This document shows positions 35,243 to 59,543 of a DNA stretch of 64,000 bases, piece after piece. The notes under the pieces are model-generated. The model did not search any database, was not told the origin of the DNA, and worked only from the letters and a program-made list of their open reading frames with translations. The position numbers were made by a program, and so were the translations under genes. Origin of the DNA: Corallium rubrum (taxonomy: Eukaryota; Cnidaria; Anthozoa; Scleralcyonacea; Coralliidae); the NCBI GenBank assembly GCA_964035015.1, contig OZ036016.1:1585330-1649329 (forward strand), written 5' to 3'. Within the stretch, counting starts at the first letter, position 1. Each line of letters opens with the position of its first letter.

Positions 35243-35453
35243 GCAAAATTATTTCATTTCGACAATAAGAAGATTCGAATAACCACTCTTGTTTTTAAAT
35301 AAATAACATTTTATTTAACACACAAACGTTTTCGCTGTTCTTAGCTCTTCAGGTGTGGGGCAATAATAAGTGGTTGGGTTACTTTGATATTACATGTTAA
35401 TTTCGCTCTACTGTTATGTTAATTTAAGATTGTTTGTATACATTCCTTTGAAG

Positions 35454-35454
<1 letters not shown>
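35240..35454 (-). mobile_element. Penelope-type terminal segment between AT arrays
   Basis: It carries the hammerhead at 35358-35317 on the minus strand, opposite to the reverse-transcriptase ORF to its right. It probably belongs to a second, inverted insertion or an inverted terminal segment of the same insertion. Confidence 0.55.
35317..35358 (-). ncRNA. Minimal type I hammerhead ribozyme
   Basis: On the minus strand: stem I CACAC pairs with GTGTG; core CTGAAGA; stem II GCT/AGC with a 6-nt loop; core GAAA; stem III the palindrome AACGTT; then T at the H17 cleavage position. All strictly required core bases are present. A stem III made of a loopless palindrome implies dimeric action, as described for hammerheads in Penelope-like elements. 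Confidence 0.75.

Positions 35455-35525
<71 letters not shown>
35455..35525. repeat. (TA)n microsatellite at the 5' truncation point
   Basis: A pure TA run directly joined to the Penelope-like ORF. Confidence 0.95.
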
Positions 35526-35528
<3 letters not shown>

Positions 35529-37325
35529 CATTCCGCACCATTAACAACGAATGACAACATTAACAACGAATTAAAAACCATCGCTGACGAATTAAAGATC
35601 ACCAATCGACTAGAACCGATGGCGCAATCACAGGCATTTATTTCATTAAAGGACCACAAGGAAGACTTCGAAAACCACACCAAATGTAGACTAATCAACC
35701 CAGCGAAAAGCCAGCTCGGAAAAGTCAGCAAAGTAATTCTTGACGACATTAACACTAAAATCGCACTAAAAACCGGCGCAAACCAATGGCGCAACACGGA
35801 ATCAACCATAGCTTGGTTTAAGAGCATCGAAAACAAGAACAGGCACTCGTTTCTTTCATTTGACATAGTAGAATTCTACCCATCAATCACAGAAGAACTA
35901 CTGGACAACGCAATTTCTTGGGCCCAAGAAATTACTCCCATCACAGATGAACACATTAAAGTGATAAAACACTGCCGGAAATCGGTCTTATTTAACAACG
36001 GCAAAGCATGGATAAAGAAAGAAAGTGAGAGTAATTTCGACGTTACTATGGGCAACTATGATGGAGCGGAGATCTGCGAACTCGTAGGTCTCTTCATATT
36101 GAGCGTCCTAGAAAAGCGATTCGGGAAGAATATTGGTCTCTATAGAGACGACGGCCTCGCTCTCCTCAACACGTGCTCAGGGAGATTAGCAGACAAGGCA
36201 AGAAAAGATCTCACCGACATATTAAAAGATTTCGGGCTAAAAATTACTGCACAAACTAACTTAAAAACCGTAAACTTCCTTGACGTGACTTTCGACCTGA
36301 CAAACGGCACATTCAAACCATACCGCAAACCGAACAACGAGCCACTATACATTCACCGCCAATCCAACCACCCACCTTCTATCCTAAAACAACTCCCCAT
36401 CTCAATAGCTGACAGAATTTCCAAACTATCTTCCGATCAAGAAACCTTTAATACAGCAGCACCAACCTACGAAAACGCCCTCAAGCACAGTAACTTCGAC
36501 GTGACGCTCACCTATAACAACAACAACAACGACGCCGAAACAAACGAAAACAACACAACGACATCTAACCGCAAACGAAACAGGAACAGAAATGTCATTT
36601 GGTACAACCCCCCTTACAGCAAGAACGTAAAGACGAACATAGGACGAAACTTTCTTAACCTCATTGACAAACATTTCCCCCAATCCAACAAATTACATAG
36701 ACTATTCAACCGAAATTCAGTGAAAGTCAGCTATAGCTGTATGGAAAACATCCAGAACACAATCCAGAGACATAACAACCGCATCTTGAAGAACAGAAAT
36801 AACCCGCGCATGAATGTAGAGGAATGCAACTGTCGACAACGCAACAGCCAACAATGCCCAATCCCAGGAAACTGTTTAGCGAAAAGCATAATATATCAAG
36901 CCGAAGCAACCACACATAACGACGGAGAAATCAAGAAATACATCGGTATGACAGCCAACGATTTCAAGCAACGTTATCGCAACCATATAAAATCATTCCG
37001 CAACGAAAAGCACGCAAACGAGACGGAACTTTCAAAGCACGTTTGGAACTTAAAGAGAAAAAAAACCGATTTTGATATAAAATGGTCAATTGTCCGACGC
37101 GCCGCGGCTTACCGAAGTGGTTCCCGAAGATGTAACCTTTGCCTGGAGGAAAAATTAATGATTATGAAGGCCGACAAGAATACTCTTTTAAATAAAAGAT
37201 CGGAAATTTTCGCAAAGTGTCGTCACACAATCAATCACCGATTAAAGAACGTCAACAAACGACCAACAGATAACAACGTCATCAGAACTATTTTTAACTC
37301 GCCAAGTATATTAACGACTAGTTGA
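35526..37325 (+). CDS. Penelope-like element reverse transcriptase with GIY-YIG nuclease, 5' truncated
   Basis: 599 codons remain, ending TAG at 37325. Counting from N (codon 1 at 35526): KDHK near 42 and CRLINPAKS near 54 (fingers); SFDIVEFYPSI near 111 (motif A Asp); MGNYDGAEICELVGLF near 175 (motif B); IGLYRDDGLALL near 204 (motif C, YxDD); VNFLDVTFDL (motif D/E region); VKVSYSCMENI; a Cys cluster CNC...CPIPGNC; IIYQA...KKYIGMT with QRYRNH and a downstream Glu (CLEEKL), i.e. a GIY-YIG endonuclease. The order RT then GIY-YIG is that of canonical endonuclease-bearing Penelope-like elements. The N-terminal part is missing, replaced by the AT array, so the copy cannot be autonomous though the rest is open. 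The frame also runs upstream through the AT array to an ATG at 35394, which is incidental. Confidence 0.85.
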
Positions 37326-55427: not shown

Positions 55428-55868
55428 AACCCGAACCAGTGCCATAGGCATACTGTAGCAGCAATCTGAACTGAAGCTAAGCTAGAATTGTGATGATAAA
55501 CACGAGCAACCGTCATCGCAACGGACATATATAAGCTACTAGAAATACATGATCGCAACAACCCCTCGCCCACTTTTAATATATACATTTTTGTAAACCA
55601 CCCCAACCACCACACACACACTTTCTGGTTTTGGTTGGGTTTTTTTTGTATTTAAGTCTACCTGTATTATAGTTTTTATATTTAGTCTATGTAATAATAA
55701 AATTAACAGCCTGAAAAATTTTGAATAGAAAGAGAGAAACAAACCAGTATAACTTCAAAGAAAATTCATTGGCAAAGTTCACCCGGCTGTAGTCATGTAC
55801 TGTAGTATTAAGTATTGACACACCGAAAGAGCATACAATGTCAATACAGTGTATTAAAAAAGAAACTA
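55428..55868. other. Gene-free stretch
   Basis: AT-rich sequence right of the DIRS palindrome. Nothing is recognised. Confidence 0.45.
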
Positions 55869-56425
55869 TAGCCCTAAACTAAGACTATAGTCCTAAGTCT
55901 AAGACTGTAGTCGTAAGACTAAATTTATAAGACTATAGTCGTAAGACTAAATTTGTAAGACTATAGTCCTAAGACTAAATTTATAAGACTATAGTCCTAA
56001 GACTAAATTTATAAGACTATAGTCCTAAGACTAAATTTATAAGACTATAGTCCTAAGACTAAATTTATAAGACTATAGTCCTAAGACTAAATTTATAAGA
56101 CTATAGTCCTAAGACTAAATTTATAAGACTATAGTCCTAAGACTAAATTTATAAGACTATAGTCCTAAGACTATATTTATAAGACTATAGTTCTAAGGCT
56201 AAATTTATAAGACTATAGTCCTAAAACTATAAAATTTATGAGACTATAGTCCTAAGACTAAATTTATAAGACTATAGTCCAAAGGCTATAGTCCTAAGAC
56301 TAAGACTTAATAGTCCTAAGACTAAGATTATAGTCCTAAGACTATAGTCCTAATACTAAGATTATAGTCCTAAGACTATAGTCCTAAGACTAAGATTATA
56401 GTCCTAAGACTATAGTCCTAACAAC
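55868..56425. repeat. 28-bp satellite
   Basis: About 14 units of AGTCCTAAGACTAAATTTAT plus AAGACTAT, then a shorter CTAAGACTATAGTC variant from 56280 on. Each unit contains the palindrome GACTATAGTC. Confidence 0.93.
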
Positions 56426-56604
56426 GAGATGAACCAAATAACAAATTTTCATTCAAAATAGATAATAGTGGCCAAGAAAAGACACAAGGCCACGTCAGTA
56501 GCTTAATCCCGACATCCAGGATCGGAAGTGACGTCACGCTATGAACCGGAAGTAAATGTGTATAATGTCAGCACTTATTTAGCCCCCATATGATGTCATC
56601 AGCG

Positions 56605-56720
56605 TACGTACGCGTACGTACAGTACGTACAGCACATCCAGGCCCGGAAGTGACGTCATAGGGGTGTGCGCACAGGCTGACGTCATCATTTTTGCGTACG
56701 TACGCGTACGTACGCGATAT
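56605..56720. repeat. GTAC-rich arrays in left arm
   Basis: Two clusters of GCGTACGTACGCGTACGTAC at about 56605 and 56694. The right arm has the same at 59308-59340 and 59400-59432, with one extra unit in its inner cluster. Confidence 0.85.
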
Positions 56721-56808
56721 CATCAAATTCCCCATAAATTCTTTTTTTTCGGAATAAAGAACACAATGCTTATAGTTTTCATAGAGATACCATTAATACT
56801 ATATAAAT

Positions 56809-57252
56809 ATGGATACGAAGATTACGGAATGCCGAACTATAGCCGAACTAACGAGTTTGGAAAACATGTATGTCTTGAGCGAGTACGAACAGGGTTTAGT
56901 GTTTGAGAGGAAAGTGGAATTAATTACTCGTTCGCTCGAGTGGGGAGTCGAAAATGAACAACTTGGGTTAACAGCGAACCTTACGGATTCCTGGACACCA
57001 GAACAAAGACAACAGTTTTTGATGGACTGGCAAGATGATGAGGCATTGCTACAGAACGAACGATTAGGGCTCGCTTCAAACCTTATGGATTCTTGGACCC
57101 CTGAACAACGAGAAAATTTCATGATGGATTGGCAAGACGACGAACCTTTGCTACAGACTGGCCGTGGGGAGAAGAGATCAATCGACGACGTAGACGATGG
57201 TGCAAGTACATCTGAACAGGTTAGCGATAATACCTTGCTCATTTGCTCATAA
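56809..57252 (+). CDS. 147-residue protein with 34-residue tandem repeats, left arm
   Basis: Starts MDTKITECRT. Residues 49-82 and 83-116 are two copies of a 34-residue unit containing NL-x-DSWTPEQR and MDWQDDE-x-LLQ. The N-terminus is probably helical and the C-terminal region is acidic with a short GEKRS patch. There is no signal peptide or membrane segment, and no family is recognised. A CAG|GTTAGC donor-like site lies after residue 137, so the true C-terminus may be spliced. It is predicted identical to the right-arm ORF. Confidence 0.7.
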   Translation: MDTKITECRTIAELTSLENMYVLSEYEQGLVFERKVELITRSLEWGVENEQLGLTANLTDSWTPEQRQQFLMDWQDDEALLQNERLGLASNLMDSWTPEQRENFMMDWQDDEPLLQTGRGEKRSIDDVDDGASTSEQVSDNTLLICS

Positions 57253-57535
57253 CTGCTCTGAGCACTTGCTCATTGGCTCATAAGTGCTCTGAGCACTTGC
57301 TCATTGGCTCATAAGTGCTCTGAGCACTTGCTCATTGGCTCATAAGTGCTCTCAGCACTTGCTCATTGGCTCATAAGTGCTCTGAGCACTTGCTCATTGG
57401 CTCATAAGTGCTCTGAGCACTTGCTCATTGGCTCATAAGTGCTCATGAGCACTTGCTCATTGGCTCATAAGTGCTCTGAGCACTTGCTCATTGGCTCATA
57501 ATTGCTCATGAGCACTTGCTCATTTGCTCATATGG
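57253..57535. repeat. 31-bp palindromic minisatellite, left arm
   Basis: About nine units of GAGCACTTGCTCATTGGCTC plus ATAAGTGCTCT; each unit is itself an inverted repeat (GAGCAC/GTGCTC). Confidence 0.93.
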
Positions 57536-57663
57536 GCCCGATCAGGCCCGAAATGGCACTTTTTGGCCCGATGAGGCCCGATGGTCCGTTTGCTGACTGG
57601 ACGTCGTAACCTGGGCAAGCCCAGGCTTGTCATGCTCCAGGACACAATACAATTTTGATAAAT

Positions 57664-57672
57664 TTTTATTTC
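57664..57672 (-). terminator. Polyadenylation signal AATAAA
   Basis: AATAAA on the minus strand about 25 bp after the stop of the central ORF. Confidence 0.5.
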
Positions 57673-57691
57673 ACATAAGCATTACATCGAT

Positions 57692-58249
57692 TCACTGATC
57701 ATCATCACTATCTGAAAAACGTCCTTGATCTTCTAAAAGCTGTTTCAAAAGAAACTTTCTTTTGTCAACCGCTGCAGATAAAGCTTCATCAGGATCAAAC
57801 GAGTCTTCGTTCACAAGTGTCTGCTTCGTTTCCATGATCTTTCCATGCACAGGATCCTTTTTAAGTGCTTTCATCCAACGTAAATTATCCACGTAAACGT
57901 CAGCGAATTCTTTCTGAAGTTCAGGGAGAATTTTTTCAAAGGCTTTCTGTTTAGCTACACTTTCTTCTTGCCCTTCCATTTGCAACGTTTTTAATAGTTC
58001 ATCATATTCTGGCCGAACCGTCACTTTTGCATCGTCAATCATGGTTGCCCAAGGATCAATCTCTTCCTTTATTTCACCATCATCTTCGGAACTCTGACTG
58101 TTTTCATCATACGACGAGCTTGACATTTCTTCATCAGATTCCATATCAGGCTCCTCAGTGTCAGTGTATTCCCTTGACGGACAATCGTTCTCGTGCCGTC
58201 TTAGATTATAGCCTTTACTAAACATTTTCCCACAATATTGGCAGTTCAT
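57692..58249 (-). CDS. Acidic C2HC zinc-finger protein, central ORF of the Polinton-like element
   Basis: 185 codons. A single finger at the N-terminus, C3-x2-C6-x12-H19-x3-C23, is followed by a Glu/Ser/Asp-rich linker (about 28-65). Then comes a helical region (VRPEYDELLKTLQMEG, FEKILPELQKEF, DNLRWMKALKKDPVHGK) and a second helical, charged C-terminus (AAVDKRKFLLKQLLEDQG). An acceptor-like TTTACAG ends at 58268 and a polyadenylation signal follows the stop, so it is probably expressed. DNA or RNA binding is suggested by the finger only. No known family is assigned. Confidence 0.7.
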   Translation of the reverse strand: MNCQYCGKMFSKGYNLRRHENDCPSREYTDTEEPDMESDEEMSSSSYDENSQSSEDDGEIKEEIDPWATMIDDAKVTVRPEYDELLKTLQMEGQEESVAKQKAFEKILPELQKEFADVYVDNLRWMKALKKDPVHGKIMETKQTLVNEDSFDPDEALSAAVDKRKFLLKQLLEDQGRFSDSDDDQ

Positions 58250-58489
58250 TCTTTCAGCTCAGACAACCTGTAAATGACGAGTAGGGACGGAAAGTCCTTA
58301 TTAATAAACACCACTTGATTTTTGGACTACATTTATCAAAATTGTATTGTGTCTTGTTTCATTTTTTAAGCAATAATAAGTCCTTGAAGAAAAAAAATGT
58401 ACACCAGAATTAAGCCGTACCTTCTAGTCAGCAAACGGGCCATCGGGCCGTATAGTGCCTTATAGGGCCAAAACGGGCCTGATCGGGCC

Positions 58490-58790
58490 ATAATGAGCAA
58501 ATGAGCAAGTGCTCATGAGCAATTATGAGCCAATGAGCAAGTGCTCAGAGCACTTATGAGCCAATGAGCAAGTGCTCATGAGCACTTATGAGCCAATGAG
58601 CAAGTGCTCAGAGCACTTATGAGCCAATGAGCAAGTGCTCAGAGCACTTATGAGCCAATGAGCAAGTGCTGAGAGCACTTATGAGCCAATGAGCAAGTGC
58701 TCAGAGCACTTATGAGCCAATGAGCAAGTGCTCAGAGCACTTATGAGCCAATGAGCAAGTGCTCAGAGCAGTTATGAGCAAATGAGCAAG
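58490..58790. repeat. 31-bp palindromic minisatellite, right arm
   Basis: Mirror of 57253-57535, about nine units, with a slightly different order of the TCTGAGC and TCATGAGC variants. Confidence 0.93.
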
Positions 58791-59215
58791 GTATTATCGC
58801 TAACCTGTTCAGATGTACTTGCACCATCGTCTACGTCGTCGATTGATCTCTTCTCCCCACGGCCAGTCTGTAGCAAAGGTTCGTCGTCTTGCCAATCCAT
58901 CATGAAATTTTCTCGTTGTTCAGGGGTCCAAGAATCCATAAGGTTTGAAGCGAGCCCTAATCGTTCGTTCTGTAGCAATGCCTCATCATCTTGCCAGTCC
59001 ATCAAAAACTGTTGTCTTTGTTCTGGTGTCCAGGAATCCGTAAGGTTCGCTGTTAACCCAAGTTGTTCATTTTCGACTCCCCACTCGAGCGAACGAGTAA
59101 TTAATTCCACTTTCCTCTCAAACACTAAACCCTGTTCGTACTCGCTCAAGACATACATGTTTTCCAAACTCGTTAGTTCGGCTATAGTTCGGCATTCCGT
59201 AATCTTCGTATCCAT
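58772..59215 (-). CDS. 147-residue repeat protein, right arm
   Basis: Same translated protein as 56809-57252, on the minus strand, all 147 residues. Its donor-like site at 58804 faces the acceptor at 58268 upstream of the C2HC ORF. Splicing the two would remove the minisatellite. All three acceptors that I tested run into a stop before or just after joining, so a fusion protein is not supported. Confidence 0.7.
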   Translation of the reverse strand: MDTKITECRTIAELTSLENMYVLSEYEQGLVFERKVELITRSLEWGVENEQLGLTANLTDSWTPEQRQQFLMDWQDDEALLQNERLGLASNLMDSWTPEQRENFMMDWQDDEPLLQTGRGEKRSIDDVDDGASTSEQVSDNTLLICS

Positions 59216-59543
59216 ATTTATATAGTATTAATGGTATCTCTATGAAAACTATAAGCATTGTGTTCTTTATTCCGAAAAAAAAGAATTTATGGGGAATTTG
59301 ATGATATCGCGTACGTACGCGTACGTACGCGTACGTACGCAAAAATGATGACGTCAGCCTGTGCGCACACCCCTATGACGTCACTTCCGGGCCTGGATGT
59401 GCTGTACGTACTGTACGTACGCGTACGTACGCTGATGACATCATATGGGGGCTAAATAAGTGCTGACGTTATACACATTTACTTCCGGTTCATAGCGTGA
59501 CATCACTTCCGATCCTGGATGTCGGGATTAAGCTACTCACGTC

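What the first reader, a model, noticed from the sequence alone, without database searches (positions are those of the whole stretch)
56497..59537. Palindromic 3-kb Polinton-like mini-element carrying genes inside its inverted repeats
The element has AG...CT termini, a perfect 6-bp target duplication (CACGTC) and 1.1-kb inverted arms, the diagnostic trio for Maverick/Polinton elements. Yet it has none of their polymerase, integrase or capsid genes. Instead each arm encodes the same 147-residue protein and the loop encodes a C2HC-finger protein. A non-autonomous Polinton relative that keeps three ORFs, two of them duplicated by the palindrome, is not a standard category. The ORFs may be accessory genes kept for mobilisation, silencing control or virus interference.
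Basis: partly seen in the sequence, partly recalled or inferred. Interest (0 to 1): 0.85.

Follow-up and report, generated by a model that had tools for sequence, protein, structure and literature searches.

The report
Small palindromic satellite of a virus-like transposon
A 3-kb mirror-image mobile element that has lost its own mobility genes and appears to travel with a larger virus-like transposon (an adintovirus-type Polinton) living in the same animal genome, carrying the start of that virus's DNA polymerase gene in each arm and one zinc-finger gene of its own in the middle.

Summary
In detail: element 56497-59537, AGTAG...CTACT ends, CACGTC duplication, 1.1-kb arms each encoding the same 147-residue protein, loop encoding a 185-residue C2HC-finger protein. 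It belongs to a large family in a 474-Mb, probably animal, genome: 240 matching ends (reversed control 0); 19 of 29 distinct copies read have perfect 6-bp duplications. "No polymerase gene" is wrong: the 147-residue ORF is 94% identical to the N-terminal part of a 1387-aa frame holding a Polinton-type PolB. Of 34 end pairs listed, 10 are large: 9 hold PolB-type matches, 8 an integrase. The one sampled in pieces has a chromodomain integrase. Of 24 small ones, 22 hold the finger gene and none a listed integrase; the finger gene is in 0 of the 9. Finger cores are 98.5% identical between copies, terminal 200 bp about 50%, yet a copy's own two ends agree (median 98.5%). Best reading: a helper-dependent palindromic satellite of an adintovirus-type Polinton, re-symmetrised during replication, with a finger gene apparently under purifying selection (pN/pS 0.45, CI 0.26-0.83 in 30 copies; an earlier set of 23 did not exclude 1). 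Mobilisation in trans is inferred, not shown.

The parts
56491..56496 (.). left copy of the 6-bp target duplication CACGTC
   Evidence: script
56497..57601 (+). left inverted arm; its outer part matches the first 316 bp of the left end of the full-size C13 element at 94% (right arm 91%)
56497..56536 (+). terminus AGTAGCTTAATCCCGACATCCAGGATCGGAAGTGACGTCA; same class of end at 240 places genome-wide
56809..57252 (+). 147-aa ORF = truncated N-terminal part of Polinton-type PolB
57234..57532 (+). 31-bp tandem repeat, 9.6 copies; from 57237 on the sequence departs from the PolB gene of the two helper loci compared (deletion junction)
57602..58422 (.). loop between the arms
57692..58249 (-). 185-aa C2HC zinc-finger protein gene; 150 scored matches genome-wide (238 candidates), pN/pS 0.45 in 30 copies
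58423..59537 (-). right inverted arm
58493..58790 (-). 31-bp tandem repeat of the right arm
58772..59215 (-). second copy of the 147-aa truncated PolB N-terminus, identical
59538..59543 (.). right copy of the 6-bp target duplication CACGTC
   Evidence: script

Best explanation
The element is a non-autonomous, palindromic satellite of an adintovirus-type Polinton (Maverick) that is present as full-size copies in the same genome. Shown: its ends, subterminal sequence and about the first 144 codons of PolB correspond to the PolB end of that helper, joined at 57237 to a 31-bp repeat array and a zinc-finger gene not found in the helpers; one half is mirrored to make both ends. Inferred: the helper's PolB replicates it by protein priming and the helper's rve-chromodomain integrase inserts it, giving the 6-bp duplication. 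During strand-displacement replication a nascent or displaced strand snaps back or switches template, so one arm is copied onto the other. This would explain why the two ends of one copy agree although different copies have very different ends. The finger protein probably binds the element's or helper's terminal or 31-bp repeats and helps it compete for helper functions; this last step is a guess.
For: Shared ends: 240 ends, control 0. PolB origin of the arm: residues 1-144 of the ORF are 94% identical to the N-terminal part of a 1387-aa frame in which PF03175 is also found; DNA match 95.5% over 493 bp to L058, and an AGTAGCTTA terminus in L059, both departing from the window at one point. Helper C13:11136063-11150562: identical 37-bp ends on both sides, left end 94% to the window's left arm over 316 bp, integrase rve 2.2e-13 with C-terminal Chromo 1.3e-11. 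Split between classes: the 100 ends listed of 240 give 34 pairs; 22 of 24 small ones hold the finger gene, 9 of 10 large ones hold PolB-type matches and none of those 9 the finger gene (positions, the PolB-type ones hand-picked); listed integrase matches lie in 8 of 10 large and 0 of 24 small. Symmetrising: core identity between copies median 98.5%, terminal 200 bp between copies median 50%, own two ends median 98.5% (18 rows, one copy twice); 24 of 34 pairs have identical terminal matches against 2 of 561 between copies. Finger gene: 30 copies, pN/pS 0.45, CI 0.26-0.83.
Against: No direct evidence of replication, mobilisation or expression. A first run with 23 finger copies gave pN/pS 0.46 with a CI reaching 1.17; I added seven copies after seeing it, and only then was 1 excluded. 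For the 147-aa coding part the within-copy advantage is small: 99.0% between the arms of one copy, 97.8% between copies. Some own-end pairs disagree: L027 (= L042) 55%, L035 71%, L038 84.5%, L012 85%. Some copies carry quite different arms without PolB-N (L035 type); the 40 of 258 candidates scored for that arm show no large helper. The 31-bp repeat and the finger gene have no known source. Absence of finger gene and integrase rests on capped lists (150 of 238 and 127 of 2061 candidates scored).
Confidence: 0.77

Rival explanations
1. A MITE-like or foldback derivative that is only moved by the Polinton integrase; the arms are kept alike by gene conversion in the chromosome after insertion, and no hairpin replication is involved.
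For: Many repeat families have long inverted arms, and chromosomal palindromes convert (recalled). Within-copy agreement of the arms alone does not tell when the copying occurred.
Against: A hybrid copy with two different ends but a perfect duplication (L027, AGTGTT) suggests that end exchange came before insertion. Two full-size loci with PolB-N at both ends and an integrase between (C1:59659215-59675090 and C156:602164/616392) look like the PolB end being copied onto the other end. A second lineage has 14 convergent PolB-N pairs, one of which was read and is a palindrome.
Confidence: 0.13
2. The small palindrome is a true second genome segment of a multipartite adintovirus, kept because the virus needs the finger protein, rather than a parasite of it.
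For: The finger gene was not found in the 9 large elements with PolB-type matches but in 22 of 24 small ones, and its pN/pS is below 1 in 30 copies. Bidnaviruses, which carry an adintovirus-class PolB, can have up to twelve segments (passages of PMC11071296), and putative segments of one of them show similar terminal repeats, to be treated with caution as its authors say (passages of PMC8363768).
Against: As far as two pieces of one full-size copy show, no usual function is visibly missing from the helper. No virion or co-packaging data exist.
Confidence: 0.1
3. An assembly artefact: fold-back reads or inverted duplication during assembly produced the palindromes.
For: Hairpin artefacts are known in long-read assemblies (recalled).
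Against: 19 sites with different perfect 6-bp duplications, consistent AGTAG ends, and arms that are mostly not exactly identical.
Confidence: 0.01

Closest known systems
Maverick/Polinton transposons
   Same: AG...CT ends, 6-bp duplications, long inverted repeats, N-terminal part of PolB; large elements with the same ends carry PolB-type sequence and rve integrase
   Different: about 3 kb against 13-24 kb for the large elements with integrase; no polymerase domain, integrase or capsid; an almost complete palindrome; a private finger gene
Adintoviruses (adintovirus-type Polintons of animals)
   Same: the helper has a rve integrase with C-terminal chromodomain, a feature given for adintoviruses in passages of PMC11071296, and a size (14.5 kb) close to the 13.3-14.6 kb adintoviruses, two of three near-complete, in passages of PMC8363768
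   Different: the satellite itself has none of these genes; the two features by which that paper defines the group, an OTU-like domain in PolB and a hexon, were not verified for the helper
Adenovirus defective genomes with duplicated left ends (recalled; the nine papers listed were not on this subject by title)
   Same: palindromic deletion products that keep both terminal origins of a protein-primed linear genome
   Different: here they are integrated, in many copies, and carry a gene not found in the helper
Satellite viruses and virophages
   Same: small partner that lacks replication genes and shares ends or signals with a helper
   Different: dependence on the helper is inferred, not shown; no capsid gene seen

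Membership tests
Maverick/Polinton | AG...CT termini with 6-bp target duplication | tested here: met
   window copy, and 19 of 29 distinct copies with perfect duplication, 1 with ends only, 9 unresolved
Maverick/Polinton | protein-primed PolB gene | tested here: not met
   only about 144 N-terminal residues are kept in the window element, no DNA_pol_B_2 match; PF03175 found elsewhere in the genome
Maverick/Polinton | rve integrase | tested here: not met
   no such ORF in the element, no listed integrase match on contig C53, 0 of 24 small elements; so a non-autonomous derivative, not a Polinton proper
Maverick/Polinton (as non-autonomous derivative) | ends homologous to an autonomous-type element of the same genome | tested here: met
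   window left arm 94% to L061 over 316 bp; shared end pattern
Adintovirus (for the helper) | rve integrase with C-terminal chromodomain (a described feature) | tested here: met
   rve 2.2e-13, Chromo 1.3e-11
Adintovirus (for the helper) | PolB with N-terminal OTU-like domain | tested here: inconclusive
   a 943-aa PolB ORF of the C49-type lineage gave PF03175 only; the window-type PolB was not scanned for OTU
Adintovirus (for the helper) | hexon-like capsid protein | tested here: inconclusive
   an L062 ORF looks like a Polinton capsid protein by motifs recalled from memory; no Pfam, PHROG or PDB match
Defective-interfering palindrome (works like) | both ends derived from one end of the helper genome | tested here: met
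   both arms read from the terminus into PolB
Defective-interfering palindrome (works like) | replication dependent on helper and interference with it | not testable with these tools
   needs an experiment

The most novel reading that the evidence does not exclude
A lineage of gene-carrying satellites of animal adintovirus-type Polintons. A finger-gene core moves between helper lineages by taking over the helper's own ends and mirroring them, and the finger protein is a selected tool for hijacking or restraining the helper. It would be a nuclear, integrated counterpart of defective-interfering genomes that has evolved its own gene.
Probability: 0.35. Interest if true: 0.85.

Novelty: new variant of a known kind. 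Interest (0 to 1): 0.64.

Why it matters
Polintons are usually described as large self-synthesising elements (recalled); a many-copy, gene-carrying palindromic satellite that shares their ends would show that they can have parasites of their own. Because core, ends and helpers are in one genome, questions about how protein-primed linear elements form palindromes, swap ends and control each other can be tested by comparing copies. It also warns annotators that small AGTAG...CTACT palindromes and 147-residue 'orphan' ORFs in this genome are pieces of this system.

Tried and rejected
Different transposon superfamily: rejected, since the same ends are on large elements with PolB-type matches and integrase. 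Orphan accessory gene for the 147-aa ORF: rejected. Assembly artefact: rejected (duplications differ from site to site). Finger gene as a normal gene of the helper: not seen in the 9 large elements with PolB-type matches, with the caveat that 150 of 238 finger candidates were scored. Viral contigs: no close relative of the finger protein; 11 stretches matched a pattern and none was confirmed. Structure of the finger protein: single-sequence model, mean pLDDT 58.7, only the finger region well modelled, no viral fold match at E <= 0.001. PDB: generic zinc fingers, and a TRIM5 match at E 0.51 that I take as chance. Papers (open-licence PMC only): I saw search listings, and passages of PMC11071296 and PMC8363768; no listed title was on non-autonomous or palindromic Polintons. 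The listings were 0 papers, 15 of 29, 20 of 92, 13 of 13, 10 of 49 and 9 of 9. Repbase and Dfam could not be searched. L035-type arms: the 40 matches listed of 258 candidates include many convergent pairs 2.0-2.5 kb apart and none inside the ten large elements, so their helper is unknown.
Full report
Observation. The window holds an element from 56497 to 59537 with ends AGTAGCTTAATCCC...GGGATTAAGCTACT and CACGTC on both sides. Its arms are 98-99% complementary. Each arm has the same 147-aa ORF, and the loop has a 185-aa ORF with a C2HC finger. The arms also hold 31-bp tandem repeats. Five of the eight TGACGTCA sites in the 64-kb window lie in the element; 0.7 are expected in the whole window by chance.

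A family. The genome (474 Mb, 312 contigs) has many copies. It has 15 Bcl-2 family matches, all above the Pfam cut-off, so I take it to be an animal; the species is not known to me. Twenty loci, picked from the best arm matches, were fetched with flanks, and nine further finger loci came. With the window, and counting L027 and L042 as one copy, this makes 29 distinct copies; one of them, L022, is the end of a full-size element. Nineteen have a perfect 6-bp duplication, all different (CACGTC, TGCCGA, GGGGGG, CCTACC, AGCTCT, GCCATT, GTTGTG, CGTACA, TGCGAC, GACTTA, GCTGCC, CATAAA, AGTGTT, TTTACG, TGTGTA, AGTGCC, GAGGAG, TGGCTC, GACGTT). L018 is perfect only with the farther of two right ends and has one mismatch with the nearer. 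One copy (L028) has ends but no duplication, and nine (L014, L019, L022-L026, L034, L039) gave no credible pair of ends. A pattern of the terminus has 240 matches genome-wide and none for the reversed control.

The arm is the start of PolB. The 147-aa protein matches the N-terminal 145 residues of a PolB frame of another lineage, 40 of 113 residues identical, E 2e-22 in a two-sequence comparison. Its residues 1-144 are 94% identical to the N-terminal part of a 1387-aa frame at C12, match 5598188-5598619, in which PF03175 is found further on. At DNA level the window matches that locus at 95.5% over 493 bp. A second locus, C23, begins with AGTAGCTTATCCC and is nearly identical to the window over the first part of the coding region; a PF03175 match lies about 1.4 kb further on. 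Both depart from the window at the same point (57237), where the window enters the 31-bp repeat.

The helper. End pairs facing each other mark elements. Of the 240 ends the tool listed 100, from the first contigs only; they gave 34 pairs: 24 small (1.5-5.0 kb) and 10 large (9.5-23.6 kb). Two pieces of C13:11136063-11150562 (14.5 kb) were read. Its left end matches the window's left arm at 94% and right arm at 91% over 316 bp. ORFs include a Bcl-2-like protein (Pfam Bcl-2 E 0.018), an ATPase-like protein (AAA_22 E 0.0065), both below cut-off, an integrase with rve 2.2e-13 and a C-terminal chromodomain 1.3e-11, and proteins that I call capsid-like only from recalled motifs: Pfam gave nothing above cut-off for them, PHROGs (one of them scanned) and the PDB (two scanned) gave nothing usable. 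A rve integrase with a C-terminal chromodomain is given for adintoviruses in passages of PMC11071296; adintoviruses of 13.3-14.6 kb, two of three near-complete, are listed in passages of PMC8363768. Integrase matches listed lie inside 8 of the 10 large and 0 of the 24 small elements; that list holds 128 matches, from 127 scored of 2061 candidates.

Two classes. The finger gene lies in 22 of 24 small elements; the two without it are one of 4.9 kb with a PolB-N match and one of 1.5 kb. It lies in none of the 9 large elements with PolB-type matches; the tenth large one has two finger fragments and no such match. Limits: finger positions are the 150 scored of 238 candidates. PolB-type positions were picked by hand and are N-terminal matches in most of the nine; PF03175 itself was listed inside one, C12:5585567-5600443. 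PolB-N as such does not separate the classes, since window-type satellites keep it; integrase and finger gene do.

Selection. In 30 finger copies pN/pS is 0.45 (bootstrap 0.26-0.83, 0.5% of bootstraps at or above 1). An earlier run with 23 copies gave 0.46 with an interval reaching 1.17; I added seven copies after that. The truncated PolB-N in 20 copies gives 0.38 (0.22-0.65), which may be inherited from the helper if arms are re-acquired. By my count, 130 of the 150 finger matches have no stop codon, partial matches included.

How it probably works. Cores of 18 rows (one copy twice) differ by a median of 1.5% (least identical pair 96.7%), yet their terminal 200 bp are only 50% identical between copies. 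The two ends of one copy agree at a median of 98.5%, with low values of 55% (L027 = L042), 71% (L035) and 84.5% (L038). In an earlier set of 14 copies, 13 had their own other end as best match, L012 at only 85%. For the 147-aa coding part the contrast is weak: 99.0% within, 97.8% between copies. Of 34 end pairs 24 have identical terminal matches, 6 differ by one change and 4 by four to eight; between left ends of different elements 2 of 561 comparisons are identical. So ends seem to be exchanged, and the exchange mirrored. One copy, L027, has two different ends inside a perfect duplication, as expected if exchange comes before insertion. Two full-size loci, C1:59659215-59675090 and C156:602164/616392, have PolB-N at both ends and an integrase between, as if the PolB end had been copied onto the other end. 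In the related C49-type lineage I picked 14 convergent PolB-N pairs, 8.9-12.1 kb apart; none has a listed integrase inside, whereas 22 of 33 single PolB-N loci that I picked have one within 16 kb downstream. One of these pairs was read: arms of about 5.8 kb, 99% identical in the two stretches compared (812 and 1871 bp), loop at most 732 bp, duplication GACCTC. Snap-back or template switching during protein-primed strand-displacement synthesis, as recalled for adenovirus defective genomes, would explain these facts. It is an inference.

What remains open. The source of the finger gene and of the 31-bp repeat, the function of the finger protein, the helper of the L035-type arms, and any activity. 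The finger protein could not be modelled beyond the finger and no close relative was found in viral contigs.

Verdict. A non-autonomous derivative of an adintovirus-type Polinton that keeps a helper end, is palindromic and carries one apparently private gene with pN/pS below 1: a new variant of a known kind. In the listings seen (open-licence papers only, several listings partial) no title was on non-autonomous or palindromic Polintons. Repbase and Dfam were not available.

Noticed in passing
G000 C49:8475191-8487477 and 13 further convergent PolB-N pairs: A second Polinton lineage has convergent PolB-N pairs 8.9-12.1 kb apart; none of 14 has a listed integrase inside. The one read is a palindrome with PolB in both arms and an ATPase ORF at the centre that by eye looks truncated into a repeat.
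   Followed up: partly
G000 C1:59659215-59675090 and C156:602164-616823: Full-size loci with an integrase and PolB-N sequence at both ends, like intermediates in which the PolB end was copied onto the other end.
   Followed up: partly
L061 1065-1433; L029 8486-8854: Bcl-2-like ORFs of 122 aa with a BH1-like motif (recalled) in the full-size element and in the arms of the C17 palindrome; Pfam Bcl-2 E 0.018 and 0.083, both below cut-off.
   Followed up: partly
G000 C17:88263-94523 (L029, L030): A larger palindrome, arms 2.5 kb, around a finger-gene core; the arms also carry the Bcl-2-like, a 102-aa and a 175-aa ORF. The neighbouring pieces are rich in repeats.
   Followed up: partly
L035, between the left end and the 185-aa ORF: By eye, a second small ORF of about 70 codons with a C2H2-like motif upstream of the finger gene on the same strand (sequence); I did not see it in the window copy.
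   Followed up: no
L045, L048, L051: Another PolB lineage with an ATPase-like ORF beside it (Walker A GPSQCGKT, by eye); not compared with the window's arms.
   Followed up: no
window 35388-37325 (+): 645-codon frame that looks by eye like a reverse transcriptase with a GIY-YIG-like tail (Penelope-like element).
   Followed up: no
window 55865-56412: Array of 20- and 28-bp tandem repeats beside the element.
   Followed up: no
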